64,000 bases of DNA, taken from contig OY997594.1 of assembly GCA_963921825.1 (NCBI GenBank), positions 4,159,001 through 4,223,000 on the forward strand, read 5' to 3'. The notes beneath the pieces are model-generated. The model ran no database searches and had not been told where the DNA came from. It saw nothing but the letters and a program-made list of their open reading frames with translations. This DNA comes from Erodium maritimum (Eukaryota > Streptophyta > Magnoliopsida > Geraniales > Geraniaceae). Below, in pieces: positions 51,803 to 63,602 of the stretch; position 1 is the stretch's first letter, and each line of letters begins with the position of its first letter. A program made the translations under genes and the position numbers.

Positions 51803-53231
51803 ATAACTAAGTCTCTTAACCTGTTCAGTACGATCTCTCATCTATCCTAGCCACCAGGGTCCCCTTTACCCTAGCCACCAGGGTTCTGCCGCTGTCGTCG
51901 TCCTCCACCACTCCACCATCATGTCGACGTCCCTGTCAGCCCACAACCTCTCGGTCGACGCCACCCCAACCAGTAAGCATACGCTCTTCTCCTCGCAATC
52001 ATGGTCCTTCCACCGTCACGTCGACATGGTAGCCCGAGTCCTAGAGGACCATGGGCGTCCGAGTTCTCCTCTAGGACTCGCCCCATCGTGCACGGCCAGC
52101 CCAGGCCTTTGATGGTCATGGCCACCCAGGATGGGTGGCCCATGCATGGAGCAGACTGGGATCCAATGGGGTCGTATCCGCTCTGGATTGAAGCGCCGCA
52201 GATGGAACCGGACCGATCCGTTGAACTCAATCATTGGAACCACCGTCCCCGACTGGACTGGTACCGGAGATTGCCTTGCGAGGGAATTTACTGCCGGGAT
52301 CGGGCCTCCGGTCTCCCACCGCCGCGCCTTGAAGCATCTCCGTACCCGTGGGAACAGGGGCCTCGTCTACCATGGTCGCCGTCCTACCAGATAGGGCAAG
52401 CACGCCCCACACTGCCAACCTACTTTGGGGAGATCATAAACCCTAGGGTGCATGTAAACCCTAGGGTACTCCAAAACCCTAGTATGTATGCAAACCGTAC
52501 GGTTACTCTAACCCTAGGGGATATGCTCTCAAGGAGAATCGTGATAGCCCTGCTAGGGGCCGGGGTCCAAACCCAGTGGTGGCTAAACGGCTTGGGGTGG
52601 TGTCAGTACGACCTAAGCCACAGCTGAAGCTCGGCCAGAGGAAAAAATCACCTGACCCTAGGTTGGGAGATCTGAAAGACTGTCCCTTGGCCCGTCGGGG
52701 GATCCTGAGATTCACTACGGCCATTGGACCCAGAACCAGGATGATCAAGACGGGACATAAGCCAACGGCCCCGGAGGCCCCACAGAAATCCTTGCTGCTG
52801 CCAGACAACACCGGGCAGGAACAGGAAAAGGAAATCAGCCCGGGGGGCTATAACCCCCCGGGGATGAATGAATCCCCAGGGCGGGAGTGGGAAGGACCGT
52901 CGGGGGCCTATACCCACATACCCGGGACAACTGCAGCTGGGAGGTCTCGAGGAATCCGCAGTAAAGGCTCTGTTTCATTCTGCTTTCATCGGTTTAGGTC
53001 GAATAATATTTTGGATAGTTAGCTTCTGTTTCGTTATTTACTTTCAGTTCGAAACGTTGGATCGAGGAACTCTTGTCTCCGAATCTGCGACAACAAGCAG
53101 ACTATATGTATGGAACCATGTGCGCCCGATGGGCTACGGCCGATTGGGACAAAAGCTGGTATCCGGGACTGTTAGGTCCCTCCATGTAAGCACGATTTAA
53201 TCGTAATACCACTCCTTTCCCGTTTCGAAAA
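51803..53231 (+). mobile_element. Poly(A) retroposon, 1.43 kb, with 15-bp target duplication
   Basis: Bracketed by identical AAGTGGATAATTAAT copies (51788-51802 and 53232-53246). The plus-strand element starts ATAACTAAGTCTC, has a GC-rich body with overlapping frames (longest 52001-52627, 208 codons, no recognised domain) and ends in a short A tail (TTTCGAAAA). It contains a CTAGCCACCAGGGT direct repeat (51847 and 51874) and four imperfect units around AACCCTAGGG (52440-52525). No reverse transcriptase. The long duplication and A tail imply LINE-type retroposition. Confidence 0.75.
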
Positions 53232-53333
53232 AAGTGGATAATTAATTGATCTTTTGCTGAATTTATTAAATTCTGATTTAAAATAGTAAATACTAAATAC
53301 TAAATTAAATTGAATTAAAATTGATAAAATTAA

Positions 53334-53650
53334 TTAATAAAACTATCTTGTTAGGTTGTGGGCTTCGACATGATCTCTGTCAATCTGTCGCCAGGAAGGT
53401 TCACCACGTTCGAGCTTGCGTTGATCTTTAGCATTGCTCTCTTTAGCATTCTGTCAGTCCTTTGTCGGATTCGTTGCTCCATTGCACGAAGGTTGGCTTC
53501 TACCTCCTCCCTCAATTGAACCTCCTCGTCAGACATTTTTGATCGAAATATATATGAGAAATTTGGGATTTTTAGAGGGAAAGTAGAGAGAAATTGGAGA
53601 GAAATATTGGTGGTTCGATGAATGGGGTAAAAGGTATTTATAAGTGAAAA
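53334..53650 (-). pseudogene. PIF/Harbinger transposase relic, promoter and N-terminal part
   Basis: A TATAAATACC box (53634-53643, leftward) and an AT-rich leader precede an ATG at 53536 opening 61 codons: MSDEEVQLREEVEANLRAME, then a basic RIRQRTDRMLKRAML coiled-coil-like stretch. After a frame change near 53400 the sequence gives RQIDRDHVEAHNL, which matches the start of the Harbinger nuclease domain (usual form R-IDRDRE-AHERL--DYF). Coding sequence is lost after about 53345. Its continuation is probably the relic at 50735-51375. Confidence 0.6.
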
Positions 53651-60483: not shown

Positions 60484-60614
60484 GTAATTTGATTCGGTAC
60501 AAATGTGTCTTGTCACAGAAGTTGTATATGCTCTTAACGATTGTTGTTGAAGTGTGTGTCATACATCAAAGTATGTGGATGAATAGATCTATTGACAAGT
60601 ACATTAAAGTCAGT

Positions 60615-63602
60615 CAAGGCCGGCTCAAGCTTTAAGCGAGTTAAGCAACTGCTTAAGACCTCAAATTGAAATTAGAAAAAAAAATCCATTATTGAATATA
60701 GATTTTTATGGTCAGAGTAAAAAAAATGTGAAGCAAACGTACGGGGAATCTAGTAAGTGTTGATTTGATATATCCTACTTATTTGATACTTTATAAATAA
60801 AGTTCTTAGACATTCAAATGTACATATGTATCTAAAGATGAGTCTTCAAGAATATCAGTATTGTCTTATTGTAAGAGAAACACGACATGATTAATAACTT
60901 GTGCTAGAATGTCTTGGCTTTGTAATAAAATGTTTAGTACAAAAATATGATCATGTATCGAAGAATAATATATGGAATTCACGGACTAGAAGCATGAGTC
61001 TCGTTGGGTTTAATAGTATTGAAACTCGGGGGTACTAATATACACTACAAACGGTAAAGGTTGTGTAAGAAACCAAGACTAACTTGATTAAAACACAAGT
61101 CAAAATAAAAAGAAACCCTTCAAAAATTATTACAATAAGTATGTATTAGGAAAGTTTCATTTCATGATTAAAGAATACAAATAGTATAGATGACTTTATA
61201 CACCTATCATATGGAGTTGTATTGCCCAAGCTTTAGAGAAAATGATTTACTCATATAAAGATTAAGATGCTTACCAATTATTGACATAAAGATGCTCAAC
61301 AGAGAGTCCAAACTACATATAAATTTTTACACACAAGAAATAGAGATGCTCAATAGAGAGGAAAGACCAAAAGGAATGAACATGAACGATTGTTTGTTTG
61401 TGATTTCTTAATCACAAATCAAAAGGATCAATAGGCACGAATTTGTCTTCAGATTAATTCCAATCAACATCAACAAACTAAAAAACCCCCATTTTTTGCT
61501 CTGACTTGAAATCTGTGCCTAACCTAAAGCTCGGCCGCCCTCCGCCCCTTCTCCCTCGTCTGTGACACCACGGCCACCAGGGTTGTGGCTGTTGTTGGTG
61601 AGGATCCTTAGATCCTTGCTCCTCTTCCTCCGAGCCCAAGCGTTTTGTTCTCCTCGGCCGGTACTTTCATCTCAATCCGAAGTCGGAGGCGCTTCCAGGC
61701 CTTTTCGACCTAGATCGTCGCGGATCTGTGGTTGTGGGAGGTGTTTGTAGCTTCATTGCTGCTCTCCCTTCCCAGAGGTGTACCTGATGCGGTGACTCGG
61801 CCGGATTCGCTGCGCTTGTGCTAGATCTGGCCGAACTTGCTCGTCCCTTCCTCCGTTCGCCAGGTCAGTCTCACCGGAGCTCTGTTTCACTCTGGCTTCT
61901 TCTCTCTCCTCGGTCAATGTCTTCTCCGACGTCTTGCCTCCATCCGACGTGGGACGCCTTTCTGTGACCTCCCAGGTCACTGATTAATGCGGATCTGGCA
62001 TGATGCTGCACCGACAAAGGGGGTTTGTTGGCTGGAGACTCTCGCTATTTTCGTTGCTGGATTTTGGTTCAGAGTAGGGCGTTTGTGGTTCCAGATCCGG
62101 TCTTCGGGCCAAGCCCACTCCTTGCTCCGCTTGCCAGAGCTGTCTCTCCAGAGCTTTGAACACCCTGGCTTTTCTCCGACTTGTGCGGTGTCTTCTCCGG
62201 CGTCATGCTCCCTATCCGGCGTGGGACGCCTTTCAGCATCTTCTTGGTCTTCTGATTGTCGCGGATCAAGCATGTCGCTGCACTGTCAATTTGGGGATCT
62301 GGACGGAGGTTCTGGTTGTGGTTGTGGGTTGCGTCTGGTTTGGTTAGGAGCAGCGTGACGGCGGCTCGGATCGCTAGGGTTCGTCTGTGGTCTTGGGAGG
62401 GTTCGGGTCTCCTGCGGTTCGGGCTGTGGGCCGGTTCGATGTGGCTCGGTACGGGTTGCAGACCGATTCGGGTCTCGGGTCGTGGGCTTCTTGGGGAAGG
62501 CTCTGGTTCGTTTCTTGCCCTTCCTTTATCTTGACTGCTTTACTCTTCTTTGCTTATGGACTTTGGTACGAGTTCACCTTGCAACTTGTGGAAAGGAAAT
62601 GTTGCTTTCCCTTTCTAACTCTGGCTCTTCCTCACATTTCCCTCTGGCTTGCCACTTGATTGCATTTTCTCGACTCCCCCAAGCTCACTCCTTATCTCAG
62701 TCTTCATCAATCTCTTTGGGGAAAGGAAAATCCCTTGATTCTTTGCAGCAATCTCAAACTCTGGGTGGCACAACATCTAAATCACAGGACTTTGCTGATT
62801 TGGAGCTTCAAATCACTTCTGCTACACACACTGTCTTCATCTTGAGATAGAACTTCCTTTTCTTGTATGGGGTTTGGGTTTTTGTTGTCATTTGCTTTTG
62901 TTCAGTTGGATTGTTGTATCTGCTTTGGTCTCTTTCAATCGTTAGTGTGATTGCTTTTTTGTGTAATCTTTTCTTCCTCAGAAAAGGTTAATTTAAATTT
63001 GTCTTCGCCGATAAAAAAACGATAGTTATGAACTTGGACATATATCATGAGGTAACCGAGAGATGTGTTGGCCTTGTCATATTTTGTTTGTGTTGGTTAA
63101 CTGGTGGGTTTCGATACCGAATGTCCTTAGTGCTTGAAAATTCTCACCTAGATACTACATTGCGTCGTTAGTGTCGGTTCTAATAGTTTTCTTATTTTTT
63201 GTTATATATGATTAACACTAGTTAGAGTCTATAAGATGATGACAATAAATATCTATACATGAGTTCACATATAAGCTAGAATAATTTGGTGTAATTTTAT
63301 GGAATTATTTGGAACCTATTATATCTAAACTTGACATGAAAATACATAGAATATTTGGATTTTTTTTATATAGAATTCTAGACATTAAATCATATCCATC
63401 GAGGGTGTCTTGTTAGAAATTAATCTGCGTCACCTATTTTAGATTTTTTTTAGTGTTATAAATAGACGTTGATGCTCATTTTCTTAATATGATGTAGTGT
63501 AATAATTTTGTGATCAAATTTACTTATTTTAATTTTTCATAAGAAAAAAATACATCGATCAAATTCTCGCTTAAGGCCCCAAATATCATTGGGCCGACCC
63601 TG
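60615..63602. mobile_element. hAT-like DNA transposon, 2.99 kb, inside the TRIM LTR
   Basis: Flanked by AAGTCAGT (60607-60614) and AAGTCAGC (63603-63610), a 7-of-8 match to an 8-bp hAT target duplication. The termini CAAGGCCGGCTC and GGGCCGACCCTG are imperfect inverted repeats (9 of 12), and TTAAGCGAG recurs just inside both ends. No hAT transposase is recognisable, so it is non-autonomous. Its middle is occupied by a poly(A) retroposon (about 61500-63018). Confidence 0.65.
61500..63018 (+). mobile_element. Poly(A) retroposon with a duplicated internal segment, inside the hAT-like element
   Basis: A GC-rich plus-strand body begins near 61500. A direct duplication of about 290 bp is present (about 61780-62000 and 62080-62290 share GTCTTCTCCG, CGTGGGACGCCTTTC and ATGTCGCTGCAC or ATGCTGCAC). 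It ends with a hairpin CTTTTCTTCCTCAGAAAAGG and TTTGTCTTCGCCGATAAAAAAA at 63018, the family 3' end also found at 54048. No reverse transcriptase and no target duplication found. Confidence 0.55.

What the first reader, a model, noticed from the sequence alone, without database searches (positions are those of the whole stretch)
51803..63018. A family of RT-less poly(A) retroposons, three with 13-15-bp target duplications
Elements at 51803-53231 (15-bp duplication), 54048-55125 (13 bp) and 55846-56087 (15 bp) are bracketed by exact direct repeats and end in A tails. 54048-55125, 55846-56087 and the nested element ending at 63018 share a 3' end (hairpin in two of them, then GCTGATAAAAAA or GCCGATAAAAAA). 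They carry GC-rich Pro/Ser-coding leaders but no reverse transcriptase, so they look like non-autonomous partners of an L1-type LINE, far longer than typical SINEs. The element at 51803 may be a separate subfamily.
Basis: partly seen in the sequence, partly recalled or inferred. Interest (0 to 1): 0.75.

Follow-up and report, generated by a model that had tools for sequence, protein, structure and literature searches.

The report
Hitchhiking retroposons of plant LINEs
A plant genome carries several families of jumping sequences that make no copying enzyme of their own but end in the same small RNA hairpin as a resident LINE, which is most likely how they borrow its machinery; such pairing has been described in maize and its relatives, but for few plants.

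Summary
The elements at 54048-55125 (sense minus), 55846-56087 (minus) and ~61499-63019 (plus) show no RT, have A tails and share a 3' hairpin plus GCYGATAAAAA; the first two have exact 13- and 15-bp target duplications. All are multicopy. The tail 16-mer TTTGCTGATAAAAAAA occurs 2,981 times in the 763-Mb genome (LINE copies included, share unknown) against 22 for its reversed control. The predicted partner exists: an L1-clade LINE lineage (endonuclease, RT, zf-RVT), some members with long open ORF2s, ending in the same hairpin and tail. Homology to the long elements is confined to the last ~50-105 nt. The hairpin covaries. This fits trans-mobilisation by a LINE recognising a 3' structure. The element at 51803 belongs to a separate family: other tail, no partner found, a conserved ~300-aa open frame (dN/dS 0.45 in one pair). 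Unexpected: copies with an intact 5' start and a duplication carry 10-41 nt (59 in a less certain one) of mostly copy-specific filler between the duplication and the conserved 5' end, even in sisters 96.5% identical. Closest kinds: Sadhu and the maize SINE/LINE1-1_ZM pairs; a new variant.

The parts
51788..51802 (.). 5' target-site duplication of element E1 (AAGTGGATAATTAAT)
   Evidence: direct reading; identical to 53232-53246
51803..51833 (+). E1: 31-nt filler between the duplication and the conserved 5' end
   Evidence: only its own place in the genome at <=3 mismatches
51834..53231 (+). E1: 1.4-kb A-tailed retroposon family without RT; other tail type (TTTCCCGTTTCGAAAAAA)
   Evidence: 40 of 2202 candidates scored; 25 of 43 matches, the window copy not counted among the 25, cover about 19-1414 of 1414; duplications read in 3 further copies
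51977..53022 (+). E1 open frame of ~300 aa or more, broken in this copy by one 1-nt frameshift near 52520; no Pfam family
   Evidence: (dN/dS 0.45 over 293 codons)
53232..53246 (.). 3' target-site duplication of E1
   Evidence: direct reading
54035..54047 (.). 3' (sense) target-site duplication of element E2 (ATCTGATTAATAA)
54048..55108 (-). E2: 1.06-kb apparently non-coding retroposon, sense on the minus strand
   Evidence: 58 matching pieces, 40 of 981 candidates scored
54051..54063 (-). E2 tail GCTGATAAAAAAA
54083..54103 (-). E2 3' hairpin (CCTCTTCCCTCTCAAAAGAGG), region shared with LINEs
   Evidence: weak as a fold on its own
55069..55108 (-). E2 5'-terminal GAGA hairpin (CTTTCTAGAGAGAG...CTCTCTCTAGAAAG) followed by AAACCCTAAA
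   Evidence: pattern 112 against 0 in the genome
55109..55125 (-). E2 filler, 17 nt
55126..55138 (.). 5' (sense) target-site duplication of E2
55831..55845 (.). 3' (sense) target-site duplication of element E3
55846..56087 (-). E3: ~240-bp SINE-sized retroposon, sense on the minus strand; no tRNA-like part found, no filler seen
   Evidence: 40 of 158 candidates scored; 15 near-full matches besides itself start at the same base
55877..55897 (-). E3 3' hairpin (TGCTCTACGCTTCATAGAGCA)
56088..56102 (.). 5' (sense) target-site duplication of E3
61499..63019 (+). E4: 1.5-kb apparently non-coding retroposon nested in a hAT-like element; tail GCCGATAAAAAAA at 63007-63019; no duplication found
   Evidence: 55 matching pieces, 40 of 709 candidates scored
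62964..62990 (+). E4 3' hairpin (TAATCTTTTCTTCCTCAGAAAAGGTTA)

Best explanation
E2, E3 and E4 belong to three of several families of RT-less retroposons mobilised in trans by one L1-clade LINE lineage of this plant. The shared 3' module is an ~8-bp stem with a NYYTC loop, then usually ~15-20 nt, then GCYGAT(A/C)A(n). The LINE's reverse transcriptase most likely recognises this module in the transcript and primes on a nicked, A-rich target, giving an A tail and 12-18-bp duplications. Bodies with unrelated 5' parts acquired the module and can exchange it, since some copies pair an E2-type body with an E4-type 3' part. Shown: copy number, duplications, a shared and covarying 3' end, a LINE with RT domains and the same end, no RT found in the elements. 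Inferred: recognition by the LINE RT, an internal Pol II-type promoter, present-day activity.
For: Genome searches: E2 58 matching pieces, E4 55, E3 43, each from 40 scored candidates; tail 16-mer 2,981 against 22 in the control. Duplications of >=13 bp in 9 of 37 ends (2 of the 9 are the window's own) against 0 of 1,312 control pairs. Of 11 duplications printed, 8 begin with AA and 10 are preceded by T or C, as expected of an L1-type endonuclease. The LINE at C1:22.87 Mb has Exo_endo_phos (3.7e-12), RVT_1 (4e-13) and zf-RVT (3.9e-9) in separate open pieces, and the tail. Of 20 further LINE hits of that lineage that I picked, many for long open frames, 12 showed their end: 9 GC[CT]GAT[AC]A(n), 3 variants (CTTGATC, CTTGATA, GTTTATC). 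Five with the tail have ORF2 frames of 1,214-1,239 aa. E2 matches the C1:33.26 Mb LINE best (80% over 71 nt) and E4 the C3:40.63 Mb LINE (79% over 77 nt), at the 3' end only. Covariation: score 0.635 against 0.307, 0 of 500 shuffles; slid controls 0.18-0.32. 53 of 71 ends have >=6 of 8 pairs against 6.7% of shuffled ones (see evidence against for the ends left out).
Against: E3 gave no BLAST match to the LINE ends; its link is the hairpin and the GCTGATAAA end. 8 of 20 fetched LINE hits showed no end within the stretch taken. The 20 best zf-RVT LINEs fetched show no GCYGAT tail (an end was readable in 18); one of them, L069, is related to the partner lineage by ORF2 yet ends in CTTATCAAAA. Of 18 tail sites taken from the first 100 listed places, all on contig C1, only 1 held recognisable ORF2 and 1 a duplication-bracketed short insert within ~900 bp, so the non-autonomous share of the 2,981 is unknown; one of the 18 (L083) shows no hairpin. 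I left 4 ends, L083 among them, and matches in L048 out, and 2 ends had no loop motif: counting these 6 as misses gives 53 of 77, with one LINE end counted twice. The windows were chosen by loop motif and then best pairing, keeping those with >=5 pairs, which favours pairing; one of 42 rows was misaligned; 9 of 500 shuffles reach the 7 pairs with changes on both sides. LINE 5' ends could not be read, so an origin of the bodies from LINE 5' regions is not fully excluded. No transcript or activity data.
Confidence: 0.83

Rival explanations
1. The elements are internally deleted copies of LINEs (5'UTR joined to 3'UTR), not independent bodies.
For: They share the 3' end with LINEs; such short internally deleted elements exist in Lepidoptera (PMC6740152, search listing only).
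Against: Homology of the long elements to 13 LINE 3' regions stops about 50-105 nt from the end. None of the 29 E2-type 5' hairpins on contig C1 lies within 9 kb upstream of any of 36 C1 LINE hits. Different bodies share one tail. No ORF1/ORF2 protein match in the element frames tested.
Confidence: 0.13
2. The elements are processed copies of host mRNAs captured by poly(A)-only (relaxed) recognition; the shared GCYGAT end is incidental.
For: A tails, gene-like GC-rich leaders with AAACCCTAA motifs.
Against: Different bodies share the 3' end and a covarying hairpin with LINEs; families have defined 5' ends and many copies.
Confidence: 0.03
3. E1 is mobilised by the same LINE lineage as the others.
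For: Same type of duplications, A tail and 5' filler.
Against: The E1 tail has no GCYGAT and no similarity above shuffles to 20 LINE 3' ends tested, two of them of the partner lineage (best z 1.3; that call had no positive control).
Confidence: 0.2

Closest known systems
Sadhu retroposons of Arabidopsis (Rangwala and Richards 2010, PMC2848041; sections 3, 8, 10 and the first of three parts of section 4 read)
   Same: ~0.9-kb non-coding, A-tailed, 7-16-bp duplications, no tRNA/5S part, polypyrimidine stretch near the 5' end thought to attract GAGA-binding factors, very divergent subfamilies, L1-like target sites.
   Different: The Sadhu 5' motif CAATCGTTSC is absent here, also at 1 mismatch. 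Sadhu has 39 copies in A. thaliana and the paper calls its enzyme source unclear; here there are thousands of tails (LINEs included) and a LINE with the same 3' end. No sequence comparison with Sadhu was made.
ZmSINE2/ZmSINE3 with LINE1-1_ZM, stringent-type L1 pairs of monocots (Ohshima 2013, PMC3747384; passages read)
   Same: SINEs and an L1-clade LINE share a ~50-nt 3' end with a hairpin supported by compensatory mutations, variable stem and conserved loop bases.
   Different: Those partners are tRNA-derived SINEs in grasses with conserved CGAG and UCU; here elements without a tRNA part, up to ~1.5 kb, with the terminal motif GCYGAT[AC]A. The 2013 review counts three SINE/LINE pairs in flowering plants (those two and tobacco TS with an RTE).
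5' extra nucleotides (5' EX) at LINE junctions (PMC4245944, passages read)
   Same: Extra nucleotides between duplication and insert.
   Different: There 'several' nucleotides in about half of zebrafish ZfL2-2 copies, and full-length human L1 mostly joined directly; here 10-41 nt (59 in one less certain copy) in all copies accepted as having both an intact 5' start and a supported duplication, and 0 in a 5'-truncated one (L024).

Membership tests
LINE-mobilised (TPRT) non-autonomous retroposon | 10-20-bp duplications, A tail, no RT | tested here: met
   (no duplication for the window copy of E4)
LINE-mobilised (TPRT) non-autonomous retroposon | 3' end shared with an RT-bearing LINE in the same genome | tested here: met
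   for E2 and E4; E3 only by hairpin and GCTGATAAA end (no BLAST match); not met for E1
SINE | Pol III promoter from tRNA, 5S or 7SL RNA | tested here: not met
   no Rfam or ARAGORN match in the elements; A/B boxes were not scored on their own
Sadhu | 5' motif CAATCGTTSC | tested here: not met
   0 of 5 elements even at 1 mismatch
Stringent-type plant L1 pair (LINE1-1_ZM type) | shared 3' hairpin with compensatory changes | tested here: met
Stringent-type plant L1 pair (LINE1-1_ZM type) | descent from the same L1 lineage (ME1) as the maize LINEs | not tested
   no tree built against named LINEs
Internally deleted LINE | body homologous to LINE 5'UTR/ORFs | tested here: inconclusive
   no homology found, but LINE 5' ends were not read
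ORF1-only LINE derivative (HAL1-like; name recalled), for E1 | open frame related to LINE ORF1 (DUF4283/zf-CCHC_4) | tested here: not met
   no Pfam match at E<=1 for the open frame of copy L129

The most novel reading that the evidence does not exclude
In this plant the 5' end of a full-length LINE-mobilised insert is closed by adding a freshly made stretch of about 10-40 nt. Such filler lies between the duplication and the conserved 5' end in 12 of 12 E2/E4-type copies accepted (17-41 nt; 59 in L011, whose duplication has one mismatch) and in 4 of 4 E1-type copies (10-31 nt). It is unrelated between sisters 96.5% identical over 1,258 bp, was found nowhere else in the genome for 2 of 2 fillers tested, and shows no excess of matches to the flanks. 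It would be patchwork synthesis by end joining (Pol theta-like) or serial template jumping of the RT at the end of its RNA, unlike human L1, whose full-length ends are mostly joined directly.
Probability: 0.4. Interest if true: 0.65.

Novelty: new variant of a known kind. Interest (0 to 1): 0.55.

Why it matters
For Sadhu the source of the mobilising enzyme was unclear (PMC2848041), and a 2013 review counted only three SINE/LINE pairs in flowering plants (PMC3747384). Here long retroposons without a tRNA part are tied by a covarying 3' hairpin to one LINE lineage, which makes the question of stringent versus poly(A)-only recognition in plants directly testable. The filler at 5' junctions may give a natural record of how plant cells seal the second end of TPRT.

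Tried and rejected
Chance similarity of the 12-nt end in the window: rejected only with genome counts, since 8 of 100 window shuffles reach 3 matches. Partner among the best zf-RVT LINEs: 20 of 150 listed were fetched, none shows the tail. Coding capacity of E2 and E4: 44 of 54 (E2) and 80 of 93 (E4) indels are not multiples of three; substitutions by position modulo 3 sum to 259/280/255 for E2 and 346/376/300 for E4, the latter mildly uneven (7 copies each). tRNA or other RNA origin: one tRNA in the window, at 37652, outside the elements. LINE partner of E1 and of the 58034-58400 element: no clear tail similarity above shuffles to 20 LINE ends (best z 1.3 and 2.4). Filler as inherited 5' transduction: rejected for L021/L023/L026 and most close pairs, but L004 and L005 share 8 nt, and the E1 and L130 fillers resemble each other (2 of 500 shuffles as good, one of six pairs tried). 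In some E4-type copies a T-rich stretch next to the conserved start looks shared. Filler copied from nearby DNA: no excess over control. Filler copied from elsewhere: only the copy itself at <=3 mismatches without indels, 2 of 2 tested. Left out of the filler count: L032 (12-nt AT-rich match, 7-nt gap), L056 (score 11, at the null maximum), L024 (truncated, not among the 26), and the 12 other copies without a supported duplication. In one search the real copies were tried with more tail candidates than the null pairs (at most 6), so that null is somewhat lenient; one search is the stricter control.

Literature searches made. PMC6740152 was seen in a search listing only; Ohshima's original 2012 paper was not seen, only passages of the 2013 review.
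Full report
What is there. The window lies at G000:C7:4159001-4223000 of an unnamed 763-Mb genome. It is from a plant: the region around 58820-60480 reads as a laccase-type gene (my reading, not tested). Four elements were examined: E1 (51803-53231, plus), E2 (54048-55125, sense minus), E3 (55846-56087, sense minus) and E4 (~61499-63019, plus). None was found for E4. E2, E3 and E4 end in GCTGAT or GCCGAT and an A tail, preceded by a hairpin; that of E2 is weak on its own.

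Copy number. Genome searches gave 58 matching pieces for E2 (40 of 981 candidates scored), 55 for E4 (40 of 709), 43 for E3 (40 of 158) and 43 for E1 (40 of 2202). The exact 16-mer TTTGCTGATAAAAAAA occurs 1,454 + 1,527 times, against 16 + 6 for the pattern read backwards. LINE copies are among these, and the share of non-autonomous ones is unknown. I fetched 20 places, two by mistake useless, from the first 100 listed, all on C1. The 18 usable ones share at most about the last 20-90 nt in most pairs; three (L088, L094, L098) also share longer stretches with tandem repeats. The E2-type 5' hairpin pattern occurs 112 times against 0 in its control.

Insertion signature. Among 37 tail ends in the fetched loci, some of them not true element ends, 9 have an exact duplication of 13 bp or more upstream, against 0 of 1,312 mismatched pairs. 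Two of the 9 are E2 and E3 themselves. Elements between duplications run from about 0.24 to 1.55 kb. Of 11 duplications printed, 8 begin with AA and 10 are preceded by T or C, the pattern expected for L1-type endonuclease sites.

The partner LINE. Twenty LINEs taken from the 150 best zf-RVT hits show no such tail; an end was readable in 18. One of them (L069) is related by ORF2 to one of the 18 tail sites (L100). The stretch adjoining L100 encodes Exo_endo_phos, RVT_1 and zf-RVT above their cut-offs, and a DUF4283-like piece below it, in separate open pieces. A search with its ORF2 C-terminus gave 150 scored of 10,640 candidates. I fetched twenty, many chosen for long open frames, and extended 7. 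The 3' end was found in 12: 9 end in GC[CT]GAT[AC]A(n), 3 in the variants CTTGATC, CTTGATA and GTTTATC; 8 remained unresolved. Five members with the tail have open ORF2 frames of 1,214 to 1,239 aa. BLAST of elements against 13 LINE ends finds homology near the 3' end only: 71 nt for E2 (best with the LINE at C1:33.26 Mb), 77 nt for E4 (best at C3:40.63 Mb), up to 106 nt for L029, and none for E3.

The hairpin. Aligned on the loop NYYTC, 53 of 71 ends form at least 6 of 8 pairs, against 6.7% of shuffled sequences with the loop kept. I had left out 4 ends, one of them (L083) a tail site without a hairpin, and 2 lacked the loop motif; counting all six as misses gives 53 of 77. On 42 distinct windows with at least 5 pairs the covariation score is 0.635 against 0.307 (0 of 500 shuffles) and 0.18-0.32 when slid; 88.2% of cells are paired against 70.7%; 7 pairs change on both sides, which 9 of 500 shuffles reach. 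These windows were partly chosen for pairing. Of the 13 LINE ends, 12 fold with z below -1; of the 18 tail sites, 9 (L100 is in both groups).

Bodies. E2 and E4 look non-coding: most indels break frame; substitutions are even over positions in E2 and mildly uneven in E4. L019 and L029 combine an E2-type body with an E4-type 3' part, which suggests template switching or recombination. E4 holds an internal duplication (174 nt, 74%). The E2 5' end is a GAGA-rich hairpin followed by AAACCCTAA; I infer an internal Pol II-type promoter, untested.

E1 is different. Its tail lacks GCYGAT and resembles none of 20 LINE ends. Three further copies show 16-17-bp duplications by eye, one with a mismatch; none was seen for a fourth, L129. 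Its open frame is conserved: of the 40 best rows (the window copy included), 18 have no stop in the matched part and 12 of these lie in frames of 272-335 aa; 22 have stops. Against copy L129 dN/dS is 0.45 over 293 codons, and 0.85 and 1.29 in shifted frames, but the non-coding 3' part (89.5% identical) is no more diverged than the frame (87.0%), so the constraint is moderate. The window copy has one 1-nt frameshift. No Pfam family was found. So E1 is an RT-less retroposon family that probably encodes its own protein, possibly a basic RNA-binding one (inference from composition).

5' filler. In 26 copies with a recognisable 5' start, 13 had a duplication above the null (score 12 or more; null maximum 11 of 650 pairs); L032 is doubtful and was set aside. 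In the other 12 the gap between duplication and conserved start is 17-41 nt, and 59 in L011, whose duplication has one mismatch. In four E1-type copies it is 31, 23, 23 and 10 nt. Sister copies L021 and L023 are 96.5% identical over 1,258 bp but unrelated upstream; over all pairs of 14 copies upstream scores equal the null (11.8 against 11.6). Fillers are AT-rich like the flanks (30% against 34% GC), show no local template, and two of two tested occur only once in the genome at up to 3 mismatches. Against a clean rule: L004 and L005 share 8 nt next to the start, and the E1 and L130 fillers resemble each other. The 5'-truncated copy L024 has none, and E3 shows none in the window.

Comparison. 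Of the papers seen, the nearest are Sadhu (PMC2848041) and the maize SINE/LINE1-1_ZM pairs (PMC3747384). The present system shares the body type of the former and the 3' logic of the latter. It fails the Sadhu motif test and shows no SINE-type RNA part. I file it as a new variant of LINE-dependent retroposons.

Noticed in passing
window 60615-63602: E4 lies inside what looks like a hAT-type DNA transposon (ends CAAGGCCGGCTCAA and CAGGGTCGGCCCAA, flanks AAGTCAGT/AAGTCAGC), itself apparently in an intron of a laccase-type gene (gene and family names are my reading).
   Followed up: partly
window 58034-58400: A separate ~367-bp A-tailed repeat; many copies start at the same base, 77-88% identical; 63% similar over 115 nt to the E1 3' region.
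   Followed up: partly
window 56120-58033: Decayed LINE ORF1-like stretch; a 40-aa piece gives a weak zf-CCHC_4 match (E 0.009, below cut-off).
   Followed up: partly
L061-L066, L070, L072-L079 (LINE 3' regions): Other LINEs of this genome share another conserved 3' end (e.g. GTCCCCGAACCTCTTCAACATATCATTGTTGCCGA ... TCTCAAAA), so several stringent-looking tails may coexist.
   Followed up: no
L099 (C1:20432900-20433800): A ~166-nt insert with the shared tail and a 16-bp duplication, possibly another short family or a truncated copy.
   Followed up: no
window 21700-31000: Duplicated block with two F-box-like genes on the minus strand (23066-24328, 27739-28989; ~85% identical DNA) (gene name is my reading).
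   Followed up: no
window 37652-37723: tRNA gene, the only Rfam match in the window at gathering scores.
   Followed up: no
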